DNA of 64,000 nt, from contig JAHBBC010000017.1 in NCBI GenBank assembly GCA_019915015.1, positions 930,001 to 994,000 on the forward strand, read 5' to 3'. Position numbers and translations under genes: made by a program. Under the pieces are notes generated by a model. That model was not told where the DNA came from and ran no database searches. It saw nothing but the letters and a program-made list of their open reading frames with translations. This document shows, piece by piece, positions 32,736 through 63,172 of the stretch. The DNA comes from Auriscalpium vulgare. Lineage: Eukaryota > Basidiomycota > Agaricomycetes > Russulales > Auriscalpiaceae. How positions within the stretch are numbered: the stretch's first letter is position 1; each line of letters begins with the position of its first letter.

Positions 32736-32740
32736 AATTC

Positions 32741-33230: not shown

Positions 33231-33960
33231 CAACACTGGGGAGTATCTTAGTTGCACTATTGCCTAGTACTGTAAGAAAATGGTAGTGCTCTAGCTAGGG
33301 GGCATAGTGCAAGTACATCTTAGTGTATGTGCAGTGTACTATAGTGCTAAAACCTTATGTATATGAACTGTAGTGTTCAGACTGTGTGGGGACCTGTAAC
33401 TGTAGTGTATCATCCGATATCACTGTAGTGTATGCTCAATACTATATTCCCTATACATCAAATTGCAGTGCATATCCTCTTAATACCACCATAGTGTGTC
33501 ACTCGGGTATCTACTACAGTGCAATATAGGAGTAAAGTGTTGGCTACACTACAGTGATCCGTGTGCTTACCAAAGAATACCTTGTTGTTTGAGATACACA
33601 GCAAGGCTCCGTATCAAAGGCGAGACCGTGTATTGCCTTAGCACTAGTAGTAGAAGACCTTGATCAATTTTTGGGCATTTAATCGACTTGGCAGGACAGC
33701 TAAAATGTTCCTCAACAGGCATCCTCAAGGTAAATACACTATAGTGCCACCAACGAGCCTCAAAGATGCTAAGACGAGACACACATAGCCCGAGCACTAT
33801 AGTGACACCAACGAGCCTCAAAGATGCTAAGACAAGACACACATAGCCCGAGCACTATAGTGACACCAACGAGCCTCAAAGATGCTAAGACAAGACACAC
33901 ATAGCCCGAGCACTATAGTGACACCAACGAGCCTCAAAGATGCTAAGACGAGATCCATTA
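33231..33960. repeat. KDZ-B left terminus and subterminal motif array
   Basis: AT-rich region densely packed with the motif ACTRYAGT (CACTATAGTG, ACTGTAGTG, CTACAGTG). Four tandem 58-bp units start at 33737, 33795, 33853 and 33911, each beginning with CACTATAGTG. There is no protein-like ORF. By analogy with other DNA transposons these are likely transposase-binding sites. Confidence 0.7.
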
Positions 33961-34073
33961 TATAGCCTTCGCACAATAGCGGATACAAGCACACAAGAGT
34001 TACAACACCTTCGCTACATGATTACATACAAACGGCGGGGAACTGTGCATGACCGGCAGCGTGCTGAAGCGAC

Positions 34074-34145
34074 CTATGGAGCACCGACATCAACCTCACC
34101 CTCCGACTTGTCGACCTCTGACTCATGCTCGCTCGCCTCCGACTC
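34074..34145 (-). pseudogene. KDZ-B transposase, last C-terminal codons
   Basis: In frame with 54033 onward after removing gypsy3 and one GACTC copy: the acidic tail ESDSES continues as EASEHESEVDKSEG... and ends at TAG 34076-34074. The tail matches in character the acidic Ser/Asp tail of KDZ-A (38743-38850). Confidence 0.75.
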
Positions 34146-34587
34146 TGTTACACTCTAGCCCGTACGCGAGATGCGGGGAGAGGGTATCGGGGTCACGCAC
34201 TAACAACGCCGCAAGGAGTTGTAGTGGTATCGATGCAAGTCTAGATCGACCTGTCTGAGGGCGAGGGTACAAGATGAGAGGAGGTAGCCCTGCGCCGTTC
34301 TAGCACACACTTCAGAGTATCAGAGGGGATCAGATACAAATGAATAGGCTGAAGAGTCGTCGCATGTACATGAGGTTTATATAGTAAAGGGAGTCTTCCG
34401 TATCAGCCAATCAGTACGTGCGGGATATAAGTCCAACAGCTGTTGGGATGCATGCAGGAGGCCTGCAGGCATATCAGTCATGGATCAGTCATCCATCCGT
34501 CACATGATAGAGTAAGGTGTTAGGGAATAAGAGAAAGAAAGTCATATGTCCGTGCCGTTACCAAGCGAGGCAGCGCGGCGTGTAACA
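34146..34587 (-). repeat. 3' LTR of gypsy3
   Basis: 442 bp, identical by eye to 53591-54032. The minus strand carries a TATATAAA box at 34383-34376. A purine-rich AGAGGGTGA (minus, 34588-34596) abuts it as the polypurine tract. Confidence 0.95.
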
Positions 34588-34626
34588 TCACCCTCTGCTA
34601 GAATTGTTGTCGACCGCGACAACACC

Positions 34627-35967
34627 TTAGCATTCGCCGTTCAGGTTGTCGAACTCGCAAAGCATGTTGTCGCCGGCGATACGGTCTTCTTCGTCATCGT
34701 CGTAGTATCGGCTACGGGGAATGGAGTAGGGGTTGCGGGGGCAGCAGCGTTGGATGTGATCCGGGGAGTGACAGATCCAACAGCGTCGGACCTGCTTGCC
34801 TTTCTTGCGTCGTCGTCTCCTTTCTCCTGCCTTGTCTGCTCCTCCGCGTATCCTCTGCGCTACCACACGTGCGCGCGCCATCTTGTAGCTCCGTCGGTCC
34901 AGTCTATGGTCAATGTTCGCGTCTGAAAGTCGTTGACCGGCTTCTCGCCGCATCTCCGTGAACCGCTCCAGCTGTAGCTCTGTTGCGTACATCTGTCGCT
35001 GAAGACCTAGTACTTGGGTCTTCAAGCCATCCAGTTGTTCATCGGCCTCGCAATAGAGGCGGTGGGCGTCCTGATAGCGGCGTATGTCTGCTCGTAGACC
35101 CTCGTCTCCCTCTCGAGCGATCACTTCTTGAGTGTGGACGTTGTCGTCGATGAGGATCTGATGGGTTTCGTCGGGGAGTCGTCCTGTGTCCTCGTCCAGG
35201 GGTTCATAAACTCCTCCCCATGGTCTGGCGAGCAGCGGTCGGCCTTCGTACTGTGTTCCGTATTCCCCGAAGGTTCGGGGGTGTTCTTGAAGTCGCCATG
35301 GGTCCTGTTCTTCAGGCGACGGTGATCGTGGTTCTGGAGATGGGGATGTGTCTCGTGTCCAGCTAGGCGACGGCGAGCATAAGTCAATGGGACGTCCACT
35401 GCTTCCAAGCTCGGGGGATTGTGTTCGTGCTGGTTGATACGGTGGTGATGTCGGCTCCTCCCAAGTACTGACGTCAATAGGGAGTTCGTCACCGGACGGA
35501 ATGGGTAGTGGTTCTGATGATGGGTACTCGAATGATGATTCTGCGTCGTCGTACTCAGATGGAGGGGATTGCTCTCCTGGTGCAGGCGACGATGCACCAT
35601 TTGATAGGATGGGGGGTGCGCTCGGTTCTTCATCGCTAGTTGTTGGCGTGCGGGTATTCGGGATACCTTGAGTGATCTCGATGACCGGATCGGGTACTGT
35701 CAGGGTGTCGAGGACGTGGTCGATGTACTCATTGACGTATGCCATATGAGCTTGCACTACTTGATAGTGTTCGGGGCTAGTCCGATAGTGGTTGATGAAC
35801 GCGATGCGTTCCATGATCGGTTCGTTGTCGTAAACCGTGGCGTCGAACTCTTGGAATACTGCTGGGGTGACTCTTCTGATGGTGACGTTGGAGCCAAGTA
35901 ATCTGATGTGAACGCGGGGTCCGTTGGGGACCGCGTAGTAGTAGCTGTTGACGGAGCGAGTCGACAT
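34627..35967 (-). CDS. Third ORF of gypsy3 with its own zinc knuckle
   Basis: 446 codons, intact, between pol and the 3' LTR. It starts MSTRSVNSYYYAVPNG. N-terminal ~130 residues look globular; the middle (~140-260) is Pro/Ser/acidic and probably disordered; residues ~270-375 look coiled-coil; a Lys/Arg patch is followed by a CCHC knuckle (CWICHSPDHIQRCC, C-x2-C-x4-H-x4-C, near 405-418). Gag of the same element has a separate knuckle. The layout resembles a second Gag-like or RNA-binding protein. The role is unknown; it could be a nucleic-acid chaperone or particle component. It shows no obvious similarity to ORF3 of the other chromovirus. Confidence 0.85.
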   Translation of the reverse strand: MSTRSVNSYYYAVPNGPRVHIRLLGSNVTIRRVTPAVFQEFDATVYDNEPIMERIAFINHYRTSPEHYQVVQAHMAYVNEYIDHVLDTLTVPDPVIEITQGIPNTRTPTTSDEEPSAPPILSNGASSPAPGEQSPPSEYDDAESSFEYPSSEPLPIPSGDELPIDVSTWEEPTSPPYQPARTQSPELGSSGRPIDLCSPSPSWTRDTSPSPEPRSPSPEEQDPWRLQEHPRTFGEYGTQYEGRPLLARPWGGVYEPLDEDTGRLPDETHQILIDDNVHTQEVIAREGDEGLRADIRRYQDAHRLYCEADEQLDGLKTQVLGLQRQMYATELQLERFTEMRREAGQRLSDANIDHRLDRRSYKMARARVVAQRIRGGADKAGERRRRRKKGKQVRRCWICHSPDHIQRCCPRNPYSIPRSRYYDDDEEDRIAGDNMLCEFDNLNGEC

Positions 35968-36112
35968 AATGGCTGAGGAAGTGGGGCGTATTTGAGTAGA
36001 CGGGGGAGTCTGAGGGAATCTACCCTCTGCTAGCGTCGTCTTTATGCTCTTGACGTCTGCTTATCTTGTCCAATAGGGTGTCGTCCGTACTCCGCTCCGC
36101 TATCTCTTCTCC

Positions 36113-37750
36113 TCATTGGTCGGCCCTTTGTTTCCCCAGCTTCTTCAGCATCGTGTCCGTCATGTGGACTGCTGCGGGGTTCTTCTCGTGGAATTCTTCT
36201 ACCAATTCCAGTGCGCTTCCCATGTCTGCTGCTGCGACCCACGAGTTCTCTGACTCGGGGTAGCCCTTCCATTGGACGAAGAACTGTACGTTGTTCCGGT
36301 ACTTTCGCGATTGGAGGATTGTCTCGATCTCCCATTGTTCTTGTCCTTCGTCATTGAGGTCAGGCGGTGGTCGTTCAAAGTTCTTCCCGTACTCTGCAGT
36401 CTCTCTGTACGGCGTTAGGAGATTGACATGGAAAACCGGGTGAAGGCCTCGATCCTTCCATTGCTTCGGGATCTCTAGTTCGTACGTCACTGGCCCTAGT
36501 ACCCGCTTGACCTTGAGGGGTCCGTAGCGTCTTGGTGCCAGTTTTGCCGTCGGATGTGTCGTTTTCAAGTTGGTGGCTTCAAGTAATACCTCATCTCCTT
36601 CCTTCAGAGGTCGAAGGTTGTTTCGGATTCGGTTCGCCACCAGTTGGTCTTTGACTTTTCGCGCCTCTCTCGCTTGCTGTCGTGCTTTGAGGAGGTCTCC
36701 CAGCCTTGCGGCTGCTGTCGGGACATTGGACGTGATCGTTCTCGGCATGATTGCTCGTGGTTGATATCCCATGAGTAACTCGAACGGGGATTTCTTTGTC
36801 GTGGAGTGTGGTCGGATGTTATGCGCGAATTCAGCCATAGGCAGTTGCTTTGCCCAATTGTCTTGCGCGTAGTTGCAGTATGCTCGGAGGTACTGCTCCA
36901 GTTCTTGATTGACCCGCTCCGTTTGTCCGTCCGTCTGGGGGTGGTATGCCGTGCTGATGTTCTGTTCTATGCCCAGGTTTGCGCATAACGCTCGCATTAC
37001 CTTGGACGCGAATTGGGGACCCCTATCGGATATGAATCGTTTCGGAAGTCCGAATCTTCGCCACACATGGATGTATAGGAGTTCTGCCGTCTGTTCTGCC
37101 GTGATGGTTTCATTGCAAGGAATGAAATTTACCCCCTTCGTAAGATCGTGGTCCACCACGACCAAGATAGAGTCGAAACCATCACTAACGGGCAATTTGA
37201 CGATGAAATCGGCAGAGATCGTGTCGTAGGGGTGGGCGTCCGCTGCAGGTCGAATCGGCACAAGTGGCGCTTTTTTGCGATTGGGTAGATTTTTCACCGT
37301 CTGGCAATTGCCACAGCCATTGACGTATGCTGTGACATAGTCCTTCATTCCCGGCCAGTTGAATTCTTCTCGTATAAGGAGAAGAGTTTTGTTGATGCCA
37401 GGGTGTCCAAATGCCGGGTGATCGTGGAATCGCCGTAGTGCGTCTCGTCGACATGCTTCTGGGACAAAAGCTTTGCCTTGGTATAACAAAACTGCCACTT
37501 GCCGTTCTGCATCGTAGTCCGTCGACCAGCCGTTCTTCTTCTTGATACCCATCAGGTATTCCTCGTGGTGGTTGTCGATTGCCTTCTCGATGTCCTCGCG
37601 TAATTGGTCCAGTCCTATGCTGGCCACTCCGCTTGTTTCTGCTGTTCGCACCTGTTGTCGTTGTTCCGGGTCTGTGAATAGTTCTTCGGGAAGAAGGATG
37701 CGATCTTCGTTGTCCTTCTTTCCATCGTCTAGTTCCCAGTTGCGCGACAT
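36113..37750 (-). CDS. pol part 2 of gypsy3 (integrase and chromodomain), separated by KDZ-A
   Basis: 545 codons after the KDZ-A insertion. Integrase zinc finger with HPAFGHPGINKT and CGNCQ; catalytic Asp in SADFIVKLP, Asp in SDRGPQF and Glu in GQTERVNQ; a GPY-like segment (RRYGPLKVKRVLGPVTYEL); and a C-terminal chromodomain (VQWKGYPESENSWV). The upstream half is at 49717-51774. The duplicated CATGTAG supplies the codons at the join, and removing KDZ-A plus one copy restores one continuous frame. No internal stop. Confidence 0.93.
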   Translation of the reverse strand: MSRNWELDDGKKDNEDRILLPEELFTDPEQRQQVRTAETSGVASIGLDQLREDIEKAIDNHHEEYLMGIKKKNGWSTDYDAERQVAVLLYQGKAFVPEACRRDALRRFHDHPAFGHPGINKTLLLIREEFNWPGMKDYVTAYVNGCGNCQTVKNLPNRKKAPLVPIRPAADAHPYDTISADFIVKLPVSDGFDSILVVVDHDLTKGVNFIPCNETITAEQTAELLYIHVWRRFGLPKRFISDRGPQFASKVMRALCANLGIEQNISTAYHPQTDGQTERVNQELEQYLRAYCNYAQDNWAKQLPMAEFAHNIRPHSTTKKSPFELLMGYQPRAIMPRTITSNVPTAAARLGDLLKARQQAREARKVKDQLVANRIRNNLRPLKEGDEVLLEATNLKTTHPTAKLAPRRYGPLKVKRVLGPVTYELEIPKQWKDRGLHPVFHVNLLTPYRETAEYGKNFERPPPDLNDEGQEQWEIETILQSRKYRNNVQFFVQWKGYPESENSWVAAADMGSALELVEEFHEKNPAAVHMTDTMLKKLGKQRADQ

Positions 37751-37754
37751 GTAG
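37748..37754. repeat. Target-site duplication CATGTAG (left) of KDZ-A
   Basis: CATGTAG precedes the KDZ-A terminus here and follows the other end at 49717-49723. It is 7 bp exact (the next base differs, A against C). Confidence 0.85.
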
Positions 37755-38385
37755 CAACACTGGGGAGCACCATAGTTGTACTAAGTACTACAATAGTAGT
37801 GCAGGTATAGTGAAGAAACCAGGAGATGTAGTAAAAGGGGTGCCCAGGCAGTGCCAATGCTACTATAGTAGTAAACCAACAATACTACAGTACTGGGTGC
37901 GAAAACTATAGTGAAGGCATCTTTTCCCTATATTCACTATAGTGTACAAAAGTCATTCTGGCCTGCGGGGCCCCTTTCCCTGTATGTACTGTAGTATTCA
38001 TTTTGCACTACTTTACTATAGTACATACATACATCTTGGCCAGCGGGGCCCTTTTCCCTGTATGTACTGTAGTATTCATTCTGCACTACTTTACTATAGT
38101 ACATACATACATCTTGGCCAGCGGGGCCCTTTCCCCTGTATGTACTGTAGTATTCATTCTGCACTACTTTACTATAGTACATACATACATCTTGGCCAGC
38201 GGGGCCCTTTCCCCTGTATGTACTGTAGTATTCATTCTGCACTACTTTACTATAGTACATACATACATCTTGGCCAGCGGGGCCCTTTTCCCTGTATGTA
38301 CTGTAGTATTCATTCTGCACTACTTAACTATAGTACATACATACATCTTGGCCAGCGCGGCCCTTTTCCCTGTATACTATAGTCA
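37755..38385. repeat. KDZ-A left subterminal region with five 78-bp tandem repeats
   Basis: Units start at 37981, 38059, 38137, 38215 and 38293, plus a partial one at 38371. Each contains TACTGTAGTA and ACTATAGT motifs. Because 78 is a multiple of three, both strands show long repetitive ORFs here; these are translation artefacts. 37755-37980 holds further single copies of the motif. Confidence 0.85.
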
Positions 38386-38742
38386 TCAATTCGTGTCAGT
38401 GTACTCGTGCTAAGTCATCTGTTCCAATTGAAGTCATGGCCCGCAGTTTTTGTTCTTGCGTGCCTTTAGAGTATCACATATGCACCCACACACATGCACA
38501 TACAATAGGTCTGGCTATCAGTTGTCGACGAAGGTGTAAATGCGGAGGTCAGTGCACCCCGCTTGACGTCAAGTCCAGGACCGCCTGTGACATGTATATA
38601 GGAGCCGGGGACTCGATGCTTGCACTCGCTGACCAACACTTCAAGATGTACTATAGTAGATACATCAAGCACAAAAACACGTCAAGTCGCGCCCCACAAG
38701 GAAGTAGCAAGGAGGTACACGCGGTTTCACGATAGCATGTTA
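38386..38742. other. Spacer downstream of KDZ-A transposase
   Basis: About 357 bp, presumably 3' UTR. It holds one more ACTATAGTA motif near 38650 and no coding signal. Confidence 0.35.
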
Positions 38743-41700
38743 TTACGCCCAGCCGTCGTCAAACCCAAAGTCCGACTCATCGGAGTCCGAGTCACCGCCC
38801 GATTGCTCTGAGTCACCGTCGCTCTCGTTCTCCAGCTCGACATCAGCACTCGTCAGACTTGGACCGCTACCGGTAATTGCAGGCGCCTGACTCGGATCAA
38901 CAGCAAGCGGAGTATGCCAGCGAGCCGTCAATCCGTGAGAAGCGAGGGCGGCGGTCCAACCTGACTGGTAGGCGGACGCGATATCGTCGTACATGGCGGC
39001 ATGGCGAGCAGCGTAAGCCTGCAACCCATCACAAACGTCTGCGGGAGCCTCTGGTCGCTGTTGGGCCCGCCCGCGCCACCATTCCGCCTTCTGTTGGAGA
39101 AAGCGCACCGCGCGCGGCATCTCCTCTTGCAGATGCTTTACCTCTTCATCCCAGCGGCGGACTCGAGCCCGCTCCTTCAGCCAGTCAACGCGCAGGCCTA
39201 CAACCGTTTAGCATGGTCGTGATGCAGGGAAGTGAAGACCCTCACCTTCGTGAACTTCGTCCTCCGTCATGTCTTCCCGGCTACCAGGGAGGTCTCGTGC
39301 TTCGTGCGGCACGGCTTTCCAGATCCACGTCTGCACTCGATGACCTTCTCCGACCCGGCGTTCGTCGTCTTTGGGCGCCCGCACATGCTCGGGCTTGAGC
39401 TCTTGAAGACGATGTTTCCAAGGCCCATCTGGCCAAACGACGAGCAGAGCCGCATACGCAGCACCGTACTGCGCCACGTGTTTGTCTATCTTTCCCTTAA
39501 ACCGGAGAATTTGGCTGCGTGCGCGAGTGTTTGACTTTTGCCCAGGGCCATCAACAAATACGTGTTTGTAGTGAATCAGGCCCGCACGAATGCGGAGCTG
39601 GCGACGAAGATTATGGAGCGCATCTTCAGCTTGCGCTAAGCGTAGGCGGCGGTATTTGTCGATGAGGCCGATGGAAAAACCCTGGGCCCAGAACACCTGG
39701 GGAATGGCCGATGGCAGGAGCAGCGGCTCGTCTTCAACCTTGCTGCCCGCATCCGCTGCCGCTGCGGCGGCGGCGGCGGCGGCGGCACCTCCGCGACGAC
39801 GTCAGCGCCCTGGACGCACAGTGGGCGATTCTTCGCTGGCTGTCGGGAGCAAGGGAATGTGGGATGCGTGCGGACTTGCAGTAGGCCCGCCTACCGCCGA
39901 CAAGCCGCCATTGCCGGCAACGGCTGAAGGGCCAGCAGCTGGATCCACGGGGGTCGAAGGTACACGGTCCGCGTCCTCGGTGAGCAGCGTTGTCGTCGAA
40001 GCCGCCAGCAGAGCCGCTACTGCAGGCATGTATATCTGCTGTATGGCCCGCCAAGACCGCAGGCGGCTCTGGAGGGCCATTCGCTTCTCGTGCAAGGCCA
40101 GCTTGCCCGCCGGCGTCTTGCTGTCGCCGTCTTCCGCTTTGACACGAAGTCCACGCCTGGGTGGAAACTGTGAGCAGCGGGCTGCGACGTCATGACGCAC
40201 ATACGTACTGTAGATCATCTAACTCAATCCCCATGCTCAAGAACACACTTGCGGACATCTCGTGCAACGACACGACGCCTCGTGACACCTCCGCGGCTTC
40301 CTCTTCTGCTAGCTCGAGTCGAACATCCAGTAGCGTTGTCACTGGATAGGACATAAGTAAAAACCGCAAATCGTCTTGGCGGGAGACGTACAGTTGCCAG
40401 GCTCACGGTACGGATTTGGCAGAGAGTGGTCCGCATCCCACGCGAGTACTGCTTCCTCCCAGCGAGCCCGAATCACGGCGGGTATCGTCTCGTTGCTCTC
40501 GTCAAGTGCTCTCTTCTGACCTGCCAGCGCAGCCACAGCTTGTTTCAGCGTGCGCGTGAGGAGCTTCCCTGGAACGTGTCGACCGTGCGTCAGTGACATC
40601 CACGCCAGATGCGTTGAATAACTGACCAAGGGTAATACTTTTCCGCCAATTGATAGCCCCAAAAAAGTCGTCGAGGCTCTCACGGCGCGAAGAGGGAGAC
40701 ATCTCACGAGTGCTCAACGCGGCACCGTTTGTGTCGGCCCAACCCGACTCAATACCCTCCCCACACGTCCGTCCCAAACCCTCCGTCTTATTGATATCGA
40801 GATTGTTCTGGCACTTGTCGCCGTGGCCCAGAATGTGGAACTTCGGTATCACGAACACAATGGTGACGTCGTTGAACTTGATACGTAAGCCTTCGGGATA
40901 CTGCTCCATTCGACTCAGGAAGTTGATGGAGAATTGGCACGCGATGTTGTATGACAATACCAACATCTTGACGTCGCCGGCCGTGCGCGCTATAGTCGAA
41001 AGAAGGACATAGTCCATGTTACAGTATCTGACCATAGCAAATATAAGCAATTGTGGAGCAACGGCTTCGGTTGTGTGCACGTACCTTTCACCCCGTTGCA
41101 GGTCGCCGACGCTGCTCTTCCGGTAAAAACAATGCCGCGCGCAAATTACAGCGCCGACTCCGTTAACGGCGAACCGCTTCGCGGCAGGCATGTTCGCGTG
41201 GTCCACTGCAGCGAACGAAGATTCACAGTGCTTCATCTAATTACGTGTCAGCGCTTGTCGCACGAGTCAGATAATGCGGCATACCTCGTCTTGATCGATG
41301 TACGTGCGGATATGCTCCTGATACGCCCCATTCTCCACAAAATACGACCAGCCCGGTGCCATGTCAATGTCTTTCAAGCCACGATTTTTCGACTTGAGCT
41401 TGAAATTGGCGTCTATGGCAAGCATCACCGCGTACTTCCATCTACGTTGTGTAAGCGACCGACTAAGACTGCGAGAAGTATGACTTACGCTTCGCTTTTT
41501 GGCGCATCGCGCCAGCCCTCGGGCAAGTTGACGCCAGGATGAGGACATGCAGGACATTCCACTACAAGCTCGCCCACTTCAGTGGCGGCGATACCTCCGG
41601 GATGGTGTGCACGGCCGCCTCGCTTGGCAATACGGATATTGCGGAAACAGCGCATAATGCGAATGAAATCCTTGTAATGGTCCTGTTGTAGAAGAGCTCC

Positions 41701-42753
41701 ATCACATGTCGCAAATGAGGCCAGAGAGACGTGCGTACCTTGGGTGTACGTAGCCCCGTGTTGTCCGTGATTCTCACAAGTCCGTGCCAGAAGTCGTACG
41801 CATTCATTTTGCCTTGAAGCGTCAACGCGTGGAACAGTTCGCACGTCCTCAACGTAACCACGGTTCTGGGCCGCTTCACTGTGGCCGGCCACCAGCGTGC
41901 ACGCAGGAGTTGTACGTATGTTGGGGTGCTTCCGCAGTCGCAGTACTTGATGATGACCTTGTGGATGCCGCTAGTGTCGATGACCGTAAGTGTTGTAGTC
42001 GTCGGCCGGGGATTGGGACACTCCAAACCGTCGTGGCCAAGCTGAACGGTCTGACCGGCCTCGAGGAGTGAATACTGTGTGAAATGGCTGCCGGTCCACC
42101 GCTAAGAAGGCAAATGAGCGCAATGTCTAGTCCAAATGAAAGAAGACGCACCTGCACGCGATGGAGAGGACTGCGTGTGTGGTGGGCACAGAGGCAAGCG
42201 TTGCACAACAACGTTGAGCCAAAGCACTCAAGACAGCGCGACGTCCACCGCTCGTTGCATTTGGCGGTGCAGCACTTCTCCAAGTCGCGCAAGCTGCCGC
42301 GACCGTCGAGTCGAACCATCTCATCGAGAAACGAGTCACGCAAGGGGAGCCATTCCCTGAGTAGCTCGACCTGCCGACCATACATTAGGGACATAGCGCT
42401 CATCTCAGACGGAGAGATGGACATACGCGGTTCTTCTTGTGCCCGCCACGTCGACGGCGCTTATTTGGAATTTCGTCGAGCATGTCCGCAATATAAACTT
42501 CAGCGTGGAGAAACTCGGGCGCGGGATCGTCGGACAAGGGTAGCGCTCCGGTCTCGAGCTGAGGAGAGGGAGGATGAGAGGCCTGGGCTTCATGGTGACG
42601 AATGGACTGGTTCGGTCTTCCTCTGGCATGGACAACAACATTTGCGTGACGTGTCACTGTCGGACCGGGGGTAGGCGTACTAGAGCCAGAGAGCATGGGA
42701 GAGATGACAACGTCATTGGCTTTGCCGCCTTTGCGCTTTCGATTTCGTCGCAT
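38743..42753 (-). pseudogene. KDZ-A transposase (CxC2 + KDZ catalytic domain), likely inactive
   Basis: About nine exons from ATG 42753 (MRRNRKRKGGK, nuclear-localisation-like) to the stop at 38743, with an intron pattern parallel to KDZ-B. In order: CxC2 cysteine cluster (CCTAKC, CLEC, CNAC...H, then QLGHDGLECPNP, ~42380-41980); CPACPHPG; DDE/RNase H-fold core with the first Asp in AIDANFKLK (~41410); LSYNIACQ (40946-40948), where KDZ-B has SYDIACQ; GRTCGEGIESGWA with the Glu (~40760); then a charged helical C-terminus and an acidic Ser/Asp tail. Two defects: the second expected catalytic Asp is Asn (AAC), and TGA at 39804-39802 interrupts the frame after the core, where KDZ-B reads through. 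KDZ proteins are DDE-type DNA transposases. The protein probably binds DNA but cannot catalyse. Exon ends are approximate. Confidence 0.82.
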
Positions 42754-42980
42754 TCTAAGGCAGGGCGAGGTGTAACCGGTGATAGCGCGAGACGGCCGAG
42801 ACGGGACCAAACAGACCACGTGCGCTCGCAAATTCCTCGGGGCTTTACAAAGGCTACTATACAAAGTGGGACCGTCGAGCGTACAGTAAGTACGATACCT
42901 CGGAGTATAATTACGCAGTTACAGATGTCTACTGAGCTCGGACGCACACCTATAACGGGGGCAAGAGAAGGGCGAGGTGC

Positions 42981-43772: not shown

Positions 43773-44488
43773 GTTTCGGAGGGGAGTAAACAGTGCGAGA
43801 TGTGAAATGACAGTGGTGAGTGCTGAAGACGCGAAGCTGAACTGGGCTCGCACACCGCCGATGCAAACCCGATTGGCACTCACCTCACTTGCTGCACCGT
43901 CAGGATGACGCATTTCCAGCAAACTATGCCAAAAGTTTAGGGCACACATTTTACACAGCTCTGTATATTTGTAGAATACTCTATGTGGACTGTCCATAGT
44001 AAAGTCACCGACAAGAAGTTTGCGGGTTATTCCCACGCTGCTCTTGCCTGTGATTCCGCTATCAGCTCTGATTCATCTGCACCATCCACCATAGTTGATC
44101 CTTGTAATCTTGTAATGAAATGCTTTCGAGGCTTCAAAGGCATTCACGCGTTCGTTTGAGTTAAGGCCAACACGCCCGCATGGGCTTATGCATTTTTCGA
44201 CTACGCAAAATCAACTACAACGATGCCAACAACAGACACAGATACTCGAGCACAACGTCCAACACAACCGTGCACTGTCCGACACTAAAGCGTAACGAGA
44301 CAAAGACTAAAGAAAGGACTGACACAAAATTTACAGTATATGCAGTCCGAACGAGACGAGTCAAGAATTGCGCGCACAGTATGTAACAAGACGGCTTGGG
44401 GCAGAACGGATCATCAACACAGCACAGATAAATAAACACGCCTAGGCGTCAAGAAAATGATGGTGGGACGGGGTGCGAGACAAAGCGC
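43773..44488. other. Intergenic region, gene 2 promoter side
   Basis: 716 bp between gene 3 stop and gene 2 start. AT-richer; ORFs here are short and not conserved with the corresponding 59177-59906 region of KDZ-B. It should hold the gene 3 3' UTR and the gene 2 promoter. Confidence 0.4.
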
Positions 44489-49182: not shown

Positions 49183-49289
49183 CTGTTTCTTGTCGGCTCC
49201 GATTCCCACTTTCTTGTCCCTTACCATGCTTTATGCCTGCCCCGATGCTGTCCCGGGCGCATCCCTGCTGTAGTGTAGAATTGACGATA

Positions 49290-51774: not shown

Positions 51775-51848
51775 GGAATTTGACTGATTTCCGCGTACAA
51801 ATACAGAGCGATGGAATATGGCCCTCGTCCAAGCCGTCAGGTTTGGGC

Positions 51849-53555: not shown

Positions 53556-53590
53556 TGCGTCGATGTAGACTTTGGGAGAGCCTATTCAGA

Positions 53591-54032
53591 TGTTACACTC
53601 TAGCCCGTACGCGAGATGCGGGGAGAGGGTATCGGGGTCACGCACTAACAACGCCGCAAGGAGTTGTAGTGGTATCGATGCAAGTCTAGATCGACCTGTC
53701 TGAGGGCGAGGGTACAAGATGAGAGGAGGTAGCCCTGCGCCGTTCTAGCACACACTTCAGAGTATCAGAGGGGATCAGATACAAATGAATAGGCTGAAGA
53801 GTCGTCGCATGTACATGAGGTTTATATAGTAAAGGGAGTCTTCCGTATCAGCCAATCAGTACGTGCGGGATATAAGTCCAACAGCTGTTGGGATGCATGC
53901 AGGAGGCCTGCAGGCATATCAGTCATGGATCAGTCATCCATCCGTCACATGATAGAGTAAGGTGTTAGGGAATAAGAGAAAGAAAGTCATATGTCCGTGC
54001 CGTTACCAAGCGAGGCAGCGCGGCGTGTAACA
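53591..54032 (-). repeat. 5' LTR of gypsy3
   Basis: 442 bp, identical by eye to 34146-34587, TATA box at 53828-53821 on the minus strand. GACTC target duplication follows at 54033-54037. Confidence 0.95.
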
Positions 54033-57000
54033 GACTCTGAGTCACTCTCTGCGATGCCGCCCACAATCGAAGCAGTAGCCATAGCCGCAAATGTCTCCAC
54101 CCCAGGCTGCGTGCTCCGCGACGGCCATTCTATGGACAGGCCGTGAGTAGACGCGACTTTCGACCATATGTCTTGGAACGAGGTTGCAAGTCCCTCAAAA
54201 ACAGCGGATTGTCGAGCTGCGTAAGCAACGAGACCGTCCCGGAGATCGTCGGTGACCTCTGTGCGCACTGACGCTCGCTGCGACCACCAATTGGCTTTCC
54301 AGAGCAGAAAGCGGACGGAACGAGGCATCTCCAGCAGGAGATGTTGTACCTCTTCGTCCCACCGACGGACGCGCGCCCGGGCCCGCACCCAATCTATGCG
54401 TATACCTAAAGACTGGTTAGACAGGACAACACGGTCCGTAAAACGGAGGCGACTCACTTTCGTGGACCTCGTCCTCGGTCAACTCCTTCGTAGCTGCCCC
54501 CGGGATGTCTTGCGCGACGTGTGAGATTGTGCGCCAGATCCACGGAATTTCTCTGCGCCCTTCGCCTGGCTTGGGCTTTTCGTCTTCAGGGCGCGGCCCG
54601 ACAACGTCCTCACTCTTGAGCTTCAGGAGTCGGAGTCGCCAGTCACCCTCGGGATCCAGCACGCACAGAGCGTCGTAAGCCGCCCGATACTGCTCTGCGT
54701 ACTTGTCGATCCGCTCCTTTAGTCGGCTGATTTGCCCCCGCGCACGCGTGTTGGCCACTTGTCCAGGGCCGTCGACGAACACCTTTTTGTAGTGGATCAT
54801 GCCCAGGCGGAGCCGGAGCTGGCGACGAAGGCTGTGGAGTGCGTCCTCTGCTTGAGCAACGCGGAGTCGTATGTTCTTCGCGATGAGGCCATTGTTGAGA
54901 CCCACGGCCCACATTGATCGCGGCACCGCCGTCGGCAACCACAGTGGCTCGTCCTCGGCCTTCGGTCCACTACTGGGTGGTGACGCGGCCCCACGGCGGC
55001 GTTTGCGTGTTGGGCGCCTCGCAGTCGACGATGCGGCATCAGCTGCGGGTGTCACAACAGCTGGTGTGGAGGGAATTGGCGTGGCAGCGGATGGGTATTC
55101 GGAGGGCGGCAGGACAGAGGAAGCCTCAGCAGTGGGCGCGACTTCCGCTAACGGCGCTGTCGGCGATGGAGCGGTGATTGTTTGCACAGCGGCGGCGGCC
55201 GCGAGCGCAGCGACAGCCGGCATGTAGATTTGCTGAATGACCCGCCAGTTGGTGATGCGATACATCAACGCGTTTCGCTTTTGTTGAAGCGCAGCCTTGC
55301 CAGCAGGTGTCTTGGACTCGTCGTTTTTGGCGCTCACGCGAAGCATGCGCCTGTGCTAATGATGAGTCGACATGCAAATTCCGTGGTAAAGGGCACGTAC
55401 TGTTGATCTTCTATGTCTAGTCCGGCATTGAGGAACACACTTGCAGACATCTGGTGCAGCGAGACGACGCCTCGCTGCATGTCCGCGGCTTCCTCTCGAG
55501 CCAACTCCAGGCGGATGTCCGCAAGTGTCGTCTCTACGAACCCGTCAGTCCTGGTAAACCATGGTTCACCGGCGGGTGGGCATACCTATGACTGGTTCTT
55601 TGTATGGGTTCCGCCTGCTACGATCGTGATCCCATGCTACAACGTCTGCTACCCACCGCTCCCGGATGTCGGCCGGAATGTTGAGATTTGCGTTTTCTAG
55701 GATGTCCGTGTGCGTCTTGAGCGCAAGCACGGCCTCGTGTAAGTTTTTCGCCAGTAGTTTACCTATAAACAAGCAATAAGTCGTCAGTTTTCGCAGAGAA
55801 GGGAAAGACTCACCGAGCCCGATAGTCTTTCTCCAGTTGATGGACCCAAACAAATTGTCTAGGGCCTCTCGACGAGAGGCCGGCGACATCTCCCGCGTAC
55901 TCAGCGCTAAGCCGTTTGTGTCGGCCCAACCTGATTCAATGCCTTCGCCACATGTCCGTCCTGATCCCTCCTCGTTGTTGAAATCGAATTTGGACCGGCA
56001 CTCTGTGTCGTGCGCGAGCAGGTGGAACTTCGGCACAAGAAATGAAACTTTGATGTCGTCCCAATTGATCCTGATGGCTTCCGGGTACTGCAGCATGTGA
56101 TGCGCAAAGTTGACTGAGAATTGACATGCAATGTCGTAAGAGATGACGATGCTCCTGTATTCTGATGCCGTTTTCGCCAGGGAAGCGAGCACCATATAGT
56201 CCATGTTGCAATACCTTGAATGCTATTAGAACATCGAGGGCCTCCCATTGAAAAAGACACGCACCGTTCGCCCTTTTGTAGATCTCCTACGCCGGATCGT
56301 CGATAGAAGCAATGCCTGGCGCATATCACGGCGCCGACACCATTGACCGCGAAGCGTTTGTGCGTGGGCATGTTTGCGTGATCAACGGCCGCAAACGAGG
56401 ACGCGCAGTGCTTCATCTAGCTCGAGTCCATCAGCATGGATGACGTCTGAGGCAAGGGAAGCATACACACCTCTTCTTCATCAACGTACTTGTCGATATG
56501 CCGCTGATATGCCTTGTTTTCCACAAAATATGACCATCCGGGGGCGAGCTCGACGTCGTCGAAGCCGCGAGCCTTGAGCTTCAGCTTGAAGTTGGCATCA
56601 ACCGCCAAGAAAGTTGCATATTTCCACCTGCCAAGCATGAGACAGATTGTCTTCGATCGAGGGACAAAACACGTACTGTTCACTTTCAGGGACGTCTTTC
56701 CAACCATCGAGGAGGTTGCGACCCGGCTGGGGACAAGCTGGACAGTCGACAACCAGCTCGCCGACCTCTGTTGCTGCCATGCCAGCCGGATCATGCCCAC
56801 GGCCACCTCGCTTGCCCATCCGAATATTGCGGTAGCACCTCATCACGCGAGTGAAATCTTTGTAGTGATCCTGCAACAATGACATCAGAGACGTGCTCGA
56901 ATGAACTGTAGTGAGTAACGTACCTTTACTCGGGTAAGCCCGCTTCCGTCCGTCACTCGCGAGATGCCGAGCCAAAAATCATACGCGTTGACCTTTCCTT

Positions 57001-57977
57001 GGATGTTGAGCGCATGGAAGAGCTCACACGCGCGGAAGGTGACCACGGTCCGCGGGCGAACGAGAGTTGCGGGCCACCAGCGCATTCGGAGGAGCTGGAC
57101 GTAGCTATGGGCTGTTTGAACATTACCGCAGTCGCAGAACCGAACTCGAATGGTGTGCACGCCGCTGACGTCGATGACAGTCAGGTCTGTCGTGGTGGCT
57201 CGGGGGTTAGGACACGAGAGACTCCCGTGACCAACCTGGATGCACAGGCCGAGCTCCGAGAGTGAACAGCGCTCGAAGAAATGCCCATTCCATCGCTGTC
57301 GTGGATTGTCAGAACCTGTTTGACATACGTATAGGAGAAAATCAATCGCACCTCGACACGATGACACGGTTGATGGCTGTGCGCGTGGAGCGTACATTCT
57401 TCGCATACCATCGCCGTCCCCAAGCAGTCAACGCATCTAATGGTAGCTGGACGGAGCGATGATGTACAAGATCCGCACAGCTGAGTATGTTGCCAATCGC
57501 CTCTCCCGTTGTGCCGAATTGTCTCGTCAAGGAAAACGTCGCGCTTCTCGACCCACTCGTTGAGCAAGTCAACCTAGCGCGGGGTCAGCCACTTGACACC
57601 AACGCCGATGACCTAGAATAACTCACTCTCTTCTTTTTGCGTGTCCGACCGCACCGTCCCTTCCTCCTGCGCGGAGAATTCCACCACATGTCCGGGTTGC
57701 CGATGTCGACGTCCTGATGTTCGAACTCCTGGGACTCCTCGGCAGGCGGTATCGGAGTGTCAGTTCCTTCACCTTGAGCTGCTTCTTGTGTAGACGCTGT
57801 TCCAGGAGCTTCTACGGCGTGATGAACGAGCGAGTGTGTGGGTCTTGACGCTGCCCGGACTTGAATATCCATGTGTCGCGCGGTCGTGACGGCTGCCCTT
57901 TGACGGCTCTGCGGAGGCTTGGGAACTCGCATTGGTGCGATTTCGATGCCATCGATAGCCTTGCGCTTGCGCCCCAT
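54033..57977 (-). pseudogene. KDZ-B transposase (CxC2 + KDZ catalytic domain), tail displaced by gypsy3
   Basis: ATG 57977 (MGRKRKAIDGIE). About nine exons, first intron 57626-57574. In order: basic Arg/Lys run (RRRKGRCGRTRKKKR); CxC2 cluster (LCGSC, CVDC, CEEC...H...CH, then QVGHGSLSCPNP and FCDCG); CPACPQPG; catalytic-core Asp in AVDANFKLK (56597-56599); Asp in SYDIACQ (56133-56135); HLLAHDTEC; GRTCGEGIESGWA with the Glu (~55930); then GSINWRKTIG; a basic region (RKRRRGAAS); a coiled helical C-terminus (LRRQLRLRLG); and an acidic Ser/Asp end cut at 54033. All three presumed DDE residues are present and no internal stop was seen. Only the last ~24 codons (34074-34145) are detached, so a near-full-length protein might still be made with foreign residues at its end. 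Exon ends are approximate. Confidence 0.82.
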
Positions 57978-58273
57978 TTCATAGGCTCAGGCAGTGTGAT
58001 GGGCGATGTGGTGACGAGGACTCGAAGGTACACTTCCCACGCCTGGGTCACCGCAATCACGTGAGCTTCAAACTGCCGCAGCAAAGCCTAAGTACAAAAG
58101 TGAGACAGCCTAACAGTCACGGGAAAATCGTGGTATAGCTAAATAGCTAGCGTGCCGGTAGATACATTGAAAATACAAAGCAGAAAGCGGGAAAACCAAA
58201 GTCAGGGACATGGCCCAACTTGAGCGGCAGCGCGATAGCCTACAAGAAGTACGAATGCGGCGACAACTTGGCC
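57978..58273. other. Transposase promoter region of KDZ-B
   Basis: 296 bp between the gene 2 stop and transposase start, matching the 227-bp gap 42754-42980 in KDZ-A. No strong motif seen. Confidence 0.35.
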
Positions 58274-59176
58274 TCAAAAGCCGTACAGGATCTTGAATTC
58301 CCTCTGTTTGAATCTGCCGGGACATACGTGAGTATCATCAAAGCATCAAGTGCGCATGGACCGATCTGTGAGTACACGCACCTGCATCCGTGAAGGATGA
58401 CTCGCTTGCCGTCGAAGCGCTCGCAGTTGCGCACAAACAGGATCTCGTCGTGAATGCCAGCGATGATTCGACGGAAACCATGCAAAGACCGAAACTGAGC
58501 CAGCGGAACGTCAACAGGCATCATCCGAGCCTGCTTCGCTCTATGCAAATAGTCGTCCCGCATGACCTCCAGGTCTCGAGCGTACACGTCGCGCCAGCTT
58601 GGTGCCTCTCCAGCGCGCGCGGTCTGCTCTCCATTGGGGGCAGTCTGTTCTCCATCGAGGGGGGCCTGCTCATCATCGCATCCGGCTTCCGCTGCATGAG
58701 GTGGGGGGAACGCAGGATTGCGCGGGGTCCCGAACGCAGCATCTTGTGCGGCTTCCTTGAGGGCACGACACTTTTTGAGGACTTCATCTTCGTCCATATA
58801 CATGATCCCAGTACGCTCAGGGTCTCGTTCGCCACTCTTCCATGCTAGGTAAGGGGCGGCGTGTCTGTGAGATAGGTCAGGTTGAAGGGATACGCGCAGA
58901 GCCAAACATAACGCACTGAACAGTTTCATCGGCACCATTGGACGCACGGGCACTACGAAGTCGAAGTTTGTATTCGCTCTTTGACACCTTGCGACGTCCC
59001 AACGCTCTGTGGGTCGCTGCGTATTCGCGCGCGCGGGCCTTATTGCTGCACCACGGCCCTGCGATGAGATGCGCGCTCGACATGAAAGATACGGATACAT
59101 ACCGCTCGGAGTAGGACAAAGCATTGTTGGTTGTGCCTTGCACATGCGCGGATTGACTCGCAGATGGTCGTTCCAT
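58274..59176 (-). CDS. KDZ cassette gene 2 (B copy)
   Basis: Three exons inferred: exon 1 from ATG 59176 (MERPSASQSAHV) with a basic region (RRKVSKSEYKLRLRSAR); exon 2 from about 58870 with DPERTGIMYMDEDEV, an insertion of GEQTA-type repeats absent from the A copy, and HGFRRIIAGIHDEI; an intron ending at CCCGGCAG; and a last exon ending FKILYGF with TGA at 58276-58274. The matching splice position after HGCR and the common YGF ending are the best evidence that this is a real gene. No domain recognised. The splice between exons 1 and 2 is uncertain. Confidence 0.66.
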
Positions 59177-59906: not shown

Positions 59907-61347
59907 CTACTCAGACGTCGTGCGCAGAAGGAACCAAGCAAGGGCGGCCGCGTGGGTGCGGAAGCCGCGGAAGGACGCATTGTCAAAACCATTGACAAGG
60001 TTGCGAATGTTAGACCTGTCGATTGCTACGCGTTAGAGTGCATCGACCGCAATGAGTTCAATACGCACATGGGGCCGCGGAAGACGCCGGTCTCAAAGCC
60101 TGCAGCCACAGCATACCACGTGTCCCCGTCGTCTGCGGCGTTGACGGCGGCTGCCGCGATGCGGGCTTGGAGGTAGCTACCAGCGCCAACAAAGCTACCC
60201 TCCGCGGTGCCGACACTGCTCGTGGGAGTGCGTGCTCCGTCGCTGCCACTGTCGACACTCTGCGCGCCACTCCAACTCCCTCTTGGCGCCAAAAGTTGAC
60301 GGCATGGCGAGCCAGGGACCGCAGCCGAGTCGCTCTCCACGTGGGGGAACTTGTAGTCGGGGAAAGGACCGGCGGGACCCATAGAGGCGCTGTCCGAGAG
60401 CGCACTAACGTCCGTGAAGGAGGACAGAGAGATTGACGGCGTTGCTGGTGCGGCGGCCCGGGCCTTGCCCTTGCCAGCGTCGCGCTGGGTGGTGGGGCAC
60501 GTGGAGGCGGCGGTACAGGAATGCGCGGAGGCGTTGGCGGTGTCGAGCGTGGTCAGGACGTCGGGCTCGTCCTGTAGGTAAACAGTGTTAGACATACCAA
60601 AGTAGATGATTTTTGATGGGTGACATACCGGAACATTGTGCTGCACGATCACACGGCACGGGGGCTCGTCGCTCGGCGGGTTCGGGTTCGGGTTGACGAG
60701 AAGGGAAACCTTCATGATTGAGGACTCCTCGGGACCTCCGTCATCACGATGGCGGCCCCTTGCAATTGCGAGCAGGTCCTCAATGTCGACGTCGCGCAGG
60801 GTGCTGGCCAACAACTCCAGCTTGGCCTCAGACGGACTAAGAGCCGACGACACCGTGGGAGCAGACGACGGCGCCAAGGAGGCTGGTGCGACAGGCGTGG
60901 GAGCTGAGGCTGGAGCCGCGTGAGTCGCAGGGGCAGGTGGGCCGGCGTCCTGGTTTGCGAAGTGAAACACGAGACTCTGGGGATGCTCGGAAGGGAAGTC
61001 AACGCGCGACGACATGGCACGGTGGTAGGCGGTGGAGGCCTTGACAAAGTCGTGGTAGCCTTTCATCTGCGCTCCGGGCCATCCTACGGCGAGGGGCGCG
61101 GCGATAAGCCTACAATGTAGCATCAGTGGCGGCTCTCACAAAGGGCGAACGTAAGGACTCACCAGTCAACGAAGACGCCAACCTCAGAGCCCTCGGAGAC
61201 GGCGTAGTACTCAAAGCGACGATTTTTGCCGGCGTGAGGGACATTTTGAGATCCTGCGGGCGGAGGGATACCTGGAGGCCCGTTGGATGGGGTAGCTGGA
61301 GCGGTGTCAGCACTCTTCTGTTTGCAATCAGCTCGTTTACGTACCAT
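59907..61347 (-). CDS. KDZ cassette gene 3 (B copy): two RNase H1-N/viroplasmin-like domains
   Basis: Candidate ATG 61347 (MVRKRADC). The first domain is split by an intron: YYAVSEGSEVGVFVDW, then VGWPGAQMKGYHDFVKASTAYHRAM. A Pro/Ser/Ala-rich middle of about 290 residues follows. The second domain is WYAVAAGFETGVFRGPM, then after an intron with CAG acceptor FDNASFRGFRTHAAALAWFL, ending at TAG 59909-59907. The three conserved blocks match the A copy while the middle is diverged, which points to selection on the two domains. No RNase H catalytic part. RNA-DNA hybrid or double-stranded nucleic-acid binding is inferred from the fold pattern. Confidence 0.75.
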
Positions 61348-61791
61348 TTGAACTCATTTTTTGGTGCTGAACACGACGGCGGCAGGGCAAGAAGGCAAGA
61401 AGATGAGCGGTAGATAAAAGCGACAAGCTGGGGGAACGCAGGGATTCGGACGAAGACGCGGGGAACGGGGCGGGGACACGAGAGCTGCAGAGAACAACAA
61501 GGGGAAAACAAGCGATGTGCGGTGTGGTGGTGGTTGGAGGTCAAGGAGCCACGCCACACCGGCCACGCACCTTGGCTGCTTTTGAAGCACCTGCTTCGGG
61601 ATTCTCCAATGGAAAGAGGGCGGTGCGACCGACCGCGCGGCAGCTCGGTCGGCTGACCGACCCGCGCATCCCTGCGCAGATCCACGAGTGCCACCTAGAT
61701 AATACTGCGGGGGAAAAATGAGCGTCGTTCCACTTTTCCCTGCCCAAAGCACTACCCACCAATCCAGGCCTCCGCGCGTTCGCATCTCGCC
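61348..61791. promoter_or_regulatory. Divergent promoter between genes 3 and 4 of KDZ-B
   Basis: 444 bp between diverging start codons, same arrangement as 46133-46466. No clear TATA box. Confidence 0.45.
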
Positions 61792-63172
61792 ATGACCAAA
61801 CGCAAAAATGCCAAAGTCAAAACTGTCGGCGCTCCAGCAAAGGTCAAAGTCAACGCCAAAATGTGGACGACTCTCGAGCAGCTAGAGCTGCTCTGGGAGT
61901 ACTTTCCCGCTTACCAGGAGCACCAGGCGGAGAAAAAGACCGTCGACTTCTGGCCCGTGCTATTTGAAGCATGGCTCCTGCGCTGGCCAGACAGCGAGCA
62001 GGACAAGACGGTGGTCACCGAAGACGGCGAACCCCCAGCCATTCGCGTTGTGAGTTCATTCTCCTGCCTCGGCGCATGGCGAGTGGTGGTCTAATATCGC
62101 GATCAGCGTCTGAAGCAGTGGTACAACAACCATACACGCGGCGCTCACTCACGCAGCGCGTCCGGCGCGCGGGGTGTCATCAACCTTACGGGCAGACTGT
62201 CCCGGCGTCTTGCGCCGTACCAGACTTACCAGACTCTGTACTGGGCATCCAAGCTGCAGGCCATCGTCGAGCCGGAGTGGAAGAAGTTCCTCGAGACGAC
62301 GCCTGGGGAGAAGCCGAGCGGCGCCTTGGCGTTTCGGAACAGGCGGTGCCGGGAACTCCTGGCTGAGGAGACGGATGAGGTGAAGCATGCGGTCGCGGTC
62401 GCATTCGATGACGGTGTCGGGGTCGAGGTTGAGGCGGATGCGCCGACTCTCGATGACGCGAAGCTGAATGACTATCAAAAGTCAGTCCGCAACTCGTTTG
62501 AAATCACCACGGAACATACTCACCTAGGCATTCAGAGCAATTGAAGCCCTCCCGCGGACGCTTGCCATCGCCTTGAAGGAGATCCAGAGGCAGACGGGCT
62601 GGGCGGCGACAATCCTGGTCGGCGGTCCAGCGCCTGCCAAAGACGGCGAATTGCAGTCGTACGCGTAAGTGGGATGCATAAGCGAACGGGTTTTGGTACT
62701 GATTGCTCACTAGGATGCATACGTCGACCGTGAATCGCTGCACATTCAAGACAGAATACAGTGGGTTCGTGTCGAATGTAGAAGAGCCGTTTGTGGCGTA
62801 CCTCAACCGAATCTTTCGTAAGCCGCTTGTCTTTGCGTGTCGCGCGCAAGTCAACTGAACGGTCTATCTAGTAACGACAGCGACAGCAACGGCCTCGACT
62901 CCTCCAGCTCCCCCGCTTGCTTCCTCGTCCACCATCCCTCCGTCGGCTACTTCCCCCGCTCCTGACCTGCCGCACGCTGTACCGGCTGCATCCACCAACG
63001 AGCCGCCGAAGACGGCGTCACCTCCGGCCGCATCTGTCGAGCCCGAAGAGCCCGAAGTGGAGGAGCCCGAGCCCATCCCCGAATGGCGGATTGCTGCGGA
63101 AGAGCGTCAGAAACGCATAATGGCTCACAAGGCCATCCTCGCGGAGCTTGACTTGGCGAACGCTGGCAGCAG
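61792..63172 (+). pseudogene. KDZ cassette gene 4 (B copy), truncated by an LTR element
   Basis: ATG 61792 (MTKRKNAKVK). Exons parallel the A copy: KMWTTLEQLELLWEYFPAYQEHQ and FWPVLFEAWLLRWPD; RLKQWYNN; RLAPYQTYQTLYWASKLQAIV; FRNRRCRELL; AIEALPRTLAIALKEI...GWAATILVGG; EEPFVAYLNRIF; then a Pro/Glu-rich stretch and EERQKRIMAHKAILAEL. Homology stops at 63172, where a 203-bp LTR begins, and the rest should resume beyond the window. Introns of about 50 nt fall at the same places as in the A copy. Confidence 0.72.

What the first reader, a model, noticed from the sequence alone, without database searches (positions are those of the whole stretch)
33231..63172. Two KDZ transposons share a conserved four-gene cassette
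KDZ-A (37755-49716) and KDZ-B (33231 to beyond 63172) carry the same gene order and orientation: transposase (-), gene 2 (-), gene 3 (-), gene 4 (+). Proteins are clearly diverged yet keep matching motif blocks and intron positions: YGF ending in gene 2, paired domains in gene 3, RLAPYQTYQTLYW in gene 4. Linked conservation across diverged copies suggests that genes 2-4 function with the transposase, making this a multi-component transposon. KDZ transposases with CxC2 domains in mushrooms are known; I do not know of this particular cassette being described.
Basis: partly seen in the sequence, partly recalled or inferred. Interest (0 to 1): 0.88.

Follow-up and report, generated by a model that had tools for sequence, protein, structure and literature searches.

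The report
Four-gene KDZ transposon with hybrid-binding gene
A fungal jumping gene of the KDZ group travels as a 12-kilobase unit that carries, besides its transposase, three further genes kept in the same order in many copies, one of which looks like the RNA-DNA-hybrid-binding part of RNase H1, so these genes probably help the element to move or to escape silencing.

Summary
Confirmed. KDZ-A is an 11,962-bp insertion (37755-49716) in a Ty3-type element with a 7-bp target duplication; the joined empty site (26 bases) occurs 13 times elsewhere. KDZ-B has the same ends and a 7-bp duplication; its right end lies 11.5 kb beyond the window. Both encode a CxC2-KDZ transposase plus genes 2 and 3 on the same strand and a divergent gene 4. 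Gene 3 has two RNase H1 N-terminal (hybrid-binding, PF01693) domains. In the 51.6-Mb genome, 36 of 44 KDZ loci of this clade have gene 2 and/or gene 4 at the stereotyped place and strand, against 0 of 65 other listed KDZ loci; 40 of 45 gene-2 and 36 of 50 gene-4 places lie within 15 kb of a KDZ domain (5.8% of the genome). Unsaturated pairs give dN/dS 0.13-0.26 (gene 2) and 0.09-0.12 (gene 4). TET/JBP, the known KDZ companion, sits with other KDZ loci here. This is a multi-gene, Kyakuja-like KDZ transposon whose extra genes are kept by selection. Their roles (end binding, protection of hybrids or transcripts) are inference. Other species could not be searched and Iyer et al. 2014 was not held, so novelty is not certain.

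The parts
33224..33230 (.). left target-site duplication of KDZ-B (GCGAATG)
   Evidence: right copy at C17:1005456-1005462 in L036
33231..34145 (.). left end of KDZ-B (CAACACTGGGGAG...), subterminal ACTRYAGT array
34146..53890 (-). Ty3-type LTR retroelement (my reading of its frames) inserted in KDZ-B and itself holding KDZ-A; 300-nt LTR stretches 34146-34445 and 53591-53890 are 100% identical
37748..37754 (.). left target-site duplication of KDZ-A (CATGTAG; right copy 49717-49723)
37755..49716 (.). KDZ-A, complete 11,962-bp element
   Evidence: joined 26-base empty site at 13 other places, 9 exact
38743..42918 (-). KDZ-A transposase region (CxC2 + KDZ domains); outer limits approximate
   Evidence: CxC2 1.1e-38, KDZ 1.7e-44
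42981..43772 (-). gene 2 of KDZ-A, 4 exons, 212 aa, ends in YGF; all-helical model of its main exon
44489..46132 (-). gene 3 of KDZ-A, 4 exons, 495 aa; RNase H1 N-terminal (PF01693) domain near each end
   Evidence: (3.8e-15, 2 stretches)
46467..49064 (+). gene 4 of KDZ-A, 8 exons, 740 aa, divergent orientation
49297..49716 (.). right subterminal repeats and right end of KDZ-A (GGCCTACGGCTC)
53987..58087 (-). KDZ-B transposase region; outer limits approximate
   Evidence: CxC2 6.4e-37, KDZ 1.9e-34
58274..59176 (-). gene 2 of KDZ-B, 241 aa
59907..61357 (-). gene 3 of KDZ-B, 412 aa, two PF01693 stretches
   Evidence: 6.5e-16
61792..63172 (+). gene 4 of KDZ-B up to the second nested retroelement; resumes in L036 about C17:1003089
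13086..13108 (+). empty-site relative of the KDZ-B target (1 mismatch) in another copy of the target ORF

Best explanation
KDZ-A and KDZ-B are two diverged families of one Kyakuja-like KDZ DNA transposon that carries four genes. Shown: the unit inserts whole with 7-bp duplications; gene order and strand are kept in most loci of the clade; genes 2 and 4 evolve under strong purifying selection; gene 3 has two RNase H1-type hybrid-binding domains. Inferred: selection acts because the genes help the element. The CxC2-KDZ transposase cuts ends that have no long inverted repeats but have dense subterminal ACTRYAGT arrays. Gene 4 (helical N-terminus in a weak model, conserved RLKQWYNN motif, divergent promoter) is my candidate for the protein that binds these arrays and assembles the ends, as TnpA does in En/Spm or the Myb-like protein in Harbinger (recalled). 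Gene 3 would bind RNA-DNA hybrids or double-stranded RNA of the element and shield it from silencing or processing, in the niche that TET/JBP fills in other KDZ elements. Gene 2 would be a structural partner. I put the multi-gene unit at about 0.95, selection for the element's own spread at about 0.75, the gene-4 role at about 0.3 and the gene-3 role at about 0.3.
For: Exact ends, duplications and empty sites for both copies. KDZ and CxC2 domains. PF01693 twice in gene 3 (stretches counted at E up to 1, whole-protein E 3.8e-15 and 6.5e-16) with alignment of the first domain to solved RNase H1 structures at E 0.002-0.004. Linkage and clade restriction. Divergence of gene 2 and of gene 4 from A tracks that of the transposase (Spearman 0.65 for 29 gene-2 loci without A and its copy; 0.71 for 16 gene-4 loci, 0.69 for 19 when the chimera L037 and two displaced loci are put back). 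dN/dS gene 4 0.09-0.12, gene 2 0.13-0.26, KDZ exon 0.02-0.11. ACTRYAGT motif 16 times in the left 1000 bp and 11 times in the right 700 bp of A, 0 times in the 10,262 bp between; 10 (915 bp) and 13 (700 bp) in the ends of B.
Against: No function was tested. The gene-4 model is poor (pTM 0.39) and had no clear PDB match, so DNA binding is not shown. The gene-2 model has no PDB match at E up to 0.001. By eye, the second hybrid-binding domain of gene 3 lacks the tryptophan that the first shares with RNase H1. Eight of 44 clade loci show neither gene 2 nor gene 4 in the stated ranges, and 14 of 50 gene-4 places have no listed KDZ within 15 kb. Two gene-2 hits lie 4.3 kb on the other side of KDZ domains outside the clade (C2:372506, C23:195956), and a local profile saw a gene-2 stretch in L024, also outside it, so the clade restriction is not absolute. 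Relatedness of copies explains part of the linkage by itself. L037 joins a KDZ-A-like left half to a foreign gene 4, so modules can be swapped. Gene 3 has no unsaturated dN/dS pair.
Confidence: 0.72

Rival explanations
1. Passenger cargo: genes 2-4 were captured once by an ancestral KDZ element and hitch-hike; they do nothing for transposition and decay slowly.
For: Copies of one clade share descent, so linkage alone does not prove function; loci with missing genes exist.
Against: Purifying selection on genes 2 and 4 between elements whose dS is 0.3-0.9; open reading frames of all three genes in KDZ-A; order kept while A and B fell to 34-50% identity over all ungapped columns.
Confidence: 0.12
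2. Counter-silencing module only: transposition needs the transposase alone, and genes 2-4 protect the element from RNA interference, methylation or R-loop processing, as TET/JBP is thought to do in other transposons.
For: Gene 3 is built of RNase H1 hybrid-binding domains. Of 17 TET/JBP hits, 6 lie 4.7-4.8 kb from KDZ domains outside the clade; none lies within 5 kb of the 44 clade loci, and one is 11.8 kb from a clade locus. Kojima 2025 (PMC12730594, discussion part 1 read) proposes TET for escape from methylation.
Against: Gives no reason for the subterminal repeat arrays nor for genes 2 and 4; no silencing data.
Confidence: 0.3
3. A second mobile element (genes 2-4) nested in KDZ elements.
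For: Gene 4 is on the opposite strand and some gene-4 pieces lie alone.
Against: Stereotyped distance and strand in 29 of 44 loci for both genes, shared outer ends; the empty sites show one insertion. Ends between the genes were not searched for beyond the repeat scan.
Confidence: 0.03

Closest known systems
Kyakuja elements (KDZ superfamily) with TET/JBP, Kojima 2025 PMC12730594 (abstract, passages, section 18, discussion part 1 and legends read)
   Same: KDZ transposase, 7-bp duplications, 5'-CA start, no terminal inverted repeats, extra gene beside the transposase
   Different: Ends in TC instead of TG; carries genes 2-4 instead of TET/JBP
KDZ1-KDZ3 of Cryptococcus (PMC12810828, passages read)
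   Same: KDZ transposase in an element of about 9-11 kb
   Different: CxC1, terminal inverted repeats of 139-241 bp, 4-8 bp duplications; no such cassette in the passages read
RNase H1 (N-terminal hybrid-binding domain, PF01693; 3bsu, 1qhk)
   Same: Domain sequence in gene 3
   Different: No RNase H catalytic domain found; two domains at the ends of a long low-complexity linker
10.7-kb insert in the Pleurotus helitron helpo1.3 (PMC4289320, passages read)
   Same: Size, a gene with a PF01693 domain, a gene with an RNase H-fold putative transposase, flanking inverted repeats
   Different: Described as captured genes; KDZ is not named in that paper's text; relation not tested here
En/Spm TnpA-TnpD and Harbinger two-protein systems (recalled)
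   Same: DNA transposons with a DNA-binding partner beside the transposase
   Different: No sequence relation was tested

Membership tests
KDZ superfamily | KDZ transposase domain PF18758 | tested here: met
   1.7e-44 and 1.9e-34
KDZ superfamily | cysteine-cluster (CxC) domain associated with KDZ | tested here: met
   CxC2 PF18803 1.1e-38 and 6.4e-37
Kyakuja (as in PMC12730594) | 7-bp target duplications | tested here: met
   CATGTAG and GCGAATG, empty sites
Kyakuja (as in PMC12730594) | 5'-CA...TG-3' termini | tested here: not met
   5'-CA met, 3' end is TC in both elements
Kyakuja (as in PMC12730594) | no terminal inverted repeats | tested here: met
   no inverted pair of 25 bases or more; ends shown side by side
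Kyakuja (as in PMC12730594) | transposase groups with Kyakuja in a tree | not tested
   reference sequences not held
TET+ KDZ transposons | TET/JBP gene inside the element | tested here: not met
   none of 17 PF12851 hits of the genome is on C17
Zisupton | 8-bp target duplications (PMC12730594) | tested here: not met
   7 bp
RNase H1 | hybrid-binding domain | tested here: met
RNase H1 | catalytic RNase H domain | tested here: not met
   only PF01693 reached its cut-off in gene 3 of A and of B
En/Spm-like two-component transposon | accessory protein binds subterminal repeats | not testable with these tools
   repeat arrays present, binding unknown

The most novel reading that the evidence does not exclude
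A KDZ clade carries, where other KDZ elements carry the DNA-demethylation gene TET/JBP, a three-gene kit centred on a transposon-encoded protein with two RNA-DNA-hybrid-binding domains: a DNA transposon that brings its own RNase H1-like hybrid-binding protein to protect its transcripts or R-loops or to join its ends, with gene 4 as an end-binding partner.
Probability: 0.22. Interest if true: 0.82.

Novelty: new variant of a known kind. Interest (0 to 1): 0.62.

Why it matters
KDZ elements are common in mushrooms (in Marasmius oreades KDZ and Plavaka together are about half of the DNA elements; PMC8290104, passages read), and the papers seen here name them by their transposase, at most with TET/JBP. 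If three further genes are part of the machine, many 'hypothetical proteins' of such genomes may be transposon parts, and the role of hybrid-binding proteins in transposition or silencing can be tested directly. This genome also offers a natural contrast between TET-bearing and cassette-bearing KDZ elements.
Full report
What is there. The window lies at C17:930001-994000 of a 51.6-Mb genome held without a name. KDZ-A fills 37755-49716 (11,962 bp). It begins CAACACTGGGGAG, ends GGCCTACGGCTC and is flanked by CATGTAG. It sits in an open frame of a Ty3-type element (my reading) whose LTR stretches (300 nt) are identical. The joined site with one copy of the 7-mer (26 bases) occurs 13 times elsewhere, 9 exact and 4 with one mismatch, against 0 for the reversed control. 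So the insertion is exact and, since its host element has identical LTRs, young (inference). KDZ-B starts at 33231 with the same 13 bases. It is interrupted by that retroelement and by another from 63173, and ends at C17:1005455 with GGCCCTACGGCTC, flanked by GCGAATG. A relative of its empty site is at 13086-13108 of the window with one mismatch. Neither element has a long terminal inverted repeat. The motif ACTRYAGT occurs 16 times in the left 1000 bp and 11 times in the right 700 bp of A, 0 times in the 10,262 bp between, and 10 and 13 times in the two ends of B; shuffled ends of A gave 0.06 and 0.04 on average.

Genes. The transposases have CxC2 (1.1e-38, 6.4e-37) and KDZ (1.7e-44, 1.9e-34) domains. 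Models by eye, without transcripts: gene 2 has 212/241 aa and ends in YGF; gene 3 has 495/412 aa; gene 4 has 740 aa in A, with 388 aa readable in B before the second retroelement. Intron phases agree in the 10 comparable introns, and 7 of 10 fall in the same alignment column (one extra intron predicted in gene 3 of B). Gene 3 has PF01693, the RNase H1 N-terminal domain, in two stretches: whole-protein E 3.8e-15 in A and 6.5e-16 in B, 56.3 and 58.7 bits, cut-off 21 (stretches counted at E up to 1). The first domain aligns with solved RNase H1 chains (3bsu, 1qhk, 6vrd; human and yeast by recall) at E 0.002-0.004. Each of the two domains is split by a phase-2 intron, which hints at an internal duplication (inference). 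The main exon of gene 2 folds as a helical protein (mean pLDDT 78) without a PDB match at E up to 0.001. The gene-4 N-terminus is helical but the model is poor (pLDDT 65, pTM 0.39).

Linkage in the genome. Searches used gene 2, gene 3, gene 4 and KDZ. The lists are lower bounds: one search scored 60 of 175 candidates, one search scored 150 of 204 and did not list all. I merged hits into places: of 76, 20 and 47 rows I entered 69, 14 and 41, the rest being further exons; of 120 rows I entered 80 and dropped 40 that I took as second pieces. KDZ-B's own gene 2, which neither search returned, was added by hand. Within 15 kb of a listed KDZ domain lie 40 of 45 gene-2, 12 of 14 gene-3 and 36 of 50 gene-4 places; such stretches are 5.8% of the genome, binomial p 4e-44, 1e-13 and 2e-33. 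This takes places as independent, which copies of one element are not. Within 15 kb of a KDZ domain of the clade itself lie 38, 12 and 36. The 80 KDZ places fall, by score against the KDZ-A exon, into 44 above 130 bits (lowest 133.8), 10 at 100-112 and 26 lower; I set the cut after seeing the list. Gene 2 on the same strand 1.5-4.5 kb upstream is found in 33 of 44, gene 4 on the other strand 4-11 kb upstream in 32, both in 29, either in 36, and gene 3 (by the A query alone) in 10. None of the 36 others, and none of 29 further KDZ clusters, has gene 2 or gene 4 there (Fisher 4e-15 for 36/44 against 0/36). Against a strict rule: two of those 29 (C2:372506, C23:195956) have a gene-2 hit 4.3 kb on the other side, three of the 36 have hits within 15 kb in another arrangement, and a local profile saw gene 2 in L024. 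The queries come from the clade, so distant forms elsewhere can be missed. In the first tally 28 of 30 gene-4 places near KDZ had the expected strand. Of the 8 clade loci without either gene, 2 have gene 2 further away (C10:370870, C2:2145116). Of 14 gene-4 places without KDZ, one is KDZ-B's own remainder and four have gene 2 or gene 3 beside them (C19:257709, C19:538437, C4:14428, C8:1402260); the other 9 are unexplained.

Selection. Between A and B, dN/dS is 0.18-0.19 (KDZ exon), 0.26-0.34 (gene 2), 0.18-0.30 (gene 3) and 0.19-0.33 (gene 4), but dS is 1.5-3.2 or undefined. In closer elements dS is usable. Three related elements (L018; C10:360-371 kb; C26:184-189 kb) give gene 4 exon 2 0.09-0.12 with dS 0.5-0.9, gene 2 exon 3 0.23-0.26 with dS 0.30-0.35, and KDZ 0.02-0.05. 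The pair C2:3091-3098/C4:736-744 gives 0.10-0.11, 0.13-0.14 and 0.10-0.11; its KDZ stretch was read across what may be an intron. No such pair was at hand for gene 3. Divergence from A of gene 2 and of gene 4 tracks that of KDZ: Spearman 0.72 in 31 gene-2 loci, 0.65 without A and its copy in 29; 0.71 in 16 gene-4 loci, from which I had left out A, the chimera L037 and displaced loci; 0.69 in 19 with L037 and two displaced loci put back.

Relation to TET. Of 17 PF12851 hits (11 over the cut-off), 6 lie 4.7-4.8 kb from a KDZ domain, all of them outside the clade (23-54 bits to the KDZ-A exon). One is 14.3 kb from another such KDZ, one is 11.8 kb from a clade locus (C10:99323), and 9 have no listed KDZ within 15 kb. 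So close TET-KDZ pairs and the cassette belong to different KDZ groups here. A further KDZ lineage (L016) has a PF01693 gene at the gene-3 place and a different divergent frame, so the hybrid-binding gene may be the older companion (inference).

How it works. Shown: one unit, mostly one clade, selection on genes 2 and 4, hybrid-binding domains in gene 3. Inferred: the transposase acts on ends with many short sites. Such ends can need an extra DNA-binding protein (En/Spm, Harbinger: recalled), for which gene 4 is the candidate. Gene 3 may bind RNA-DNA hybrids or dsRNA and guard the element against silencing. The rival that all three genes are counter-silencing only cannot be excluded.

Novelty. 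Searches of the held library for KDZ/Kyakuja, CxC2, viroplasmin with fungi or mushrooms, RNase H1 N-terminal or hybrid-binding domain with transposons, and KDZ with accessory terms listed no report of this cassette that I could recognise; of the listed papers I saw passages of six and sections of one of these (PMC12730594). Iyer et al. 2014, the founding KDZ paper, is not held, so it may be mentioned there. A possible overlooked relative is the 10.7-kb insert of Pleurotus helpo1.3 with a PF01693 gene and a putative RNase H-fold transposase (PMC4289320, passages). Kojima 2025 notes fixed gene order in TET+ IS3EU elements with an alpha-kinase gene (PMC12730594), so multi-gene fungal DNA transposons as such are known. 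Verdict: a new variant of a known kind.

Noticed in passing
L037 (C2:2063507-2072500): A copy 98.9% identical to KDZ-A from 39991 to 44817 stops inside gene 3; the rest has a different gene 4, whose exon 2 is 99% identical in protein to that at C2:3097707. It looks like a chimera of two KDZ lineages.
   Followed up: partly
genome-wide: The left-end 13-mer CAACACTGGGGAG occurs 56 times (reversed control 0), mostly without a KDZ domain of the clade nearby: probably non-autonomous derivatives or fragments.
   Followed up: partly
L016 (C1:2149886-2159836): Another KDZ lineage with a PF01693 gene at the gene-3 place and an unidentified divergent 595-aa frame in the gene-4 place.
   Followed up: partly
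37876-38453, 33737-33953, 49297-49490: Tandem arrays of 78, 58 and 97 bp in the ends of KDZ-A and KDZ-B that repeat ACTRYAGT-like motifs.
   Followed up: no
11964-13802, 26920-28053, 32734-33267: Three copies of an unidentified ORF near retroelements; the last one was hit by KDZ-B.
   Followed up: partly
28050-32588: Long open frame of a Ty1/copia-like element (my reading), 1512 aa.
   Followed up: no
63168-63172 and L036 589-593: The second nested retroelement in KDZ-B appears to have a 5-bp duplication AGCAG.
   Followed up: no
C4:550835, C4:599962, C4:626737: Three gene-4 C-terminal pieces with the same score and no listed KDZ within 15 kb.
   Followed up: no
C2:372506 and C23:195956: Two KDZ loci outside the clade with a weak gene-2 hit 4.3 kb on the downstream side, same strand.
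   Followed up: no
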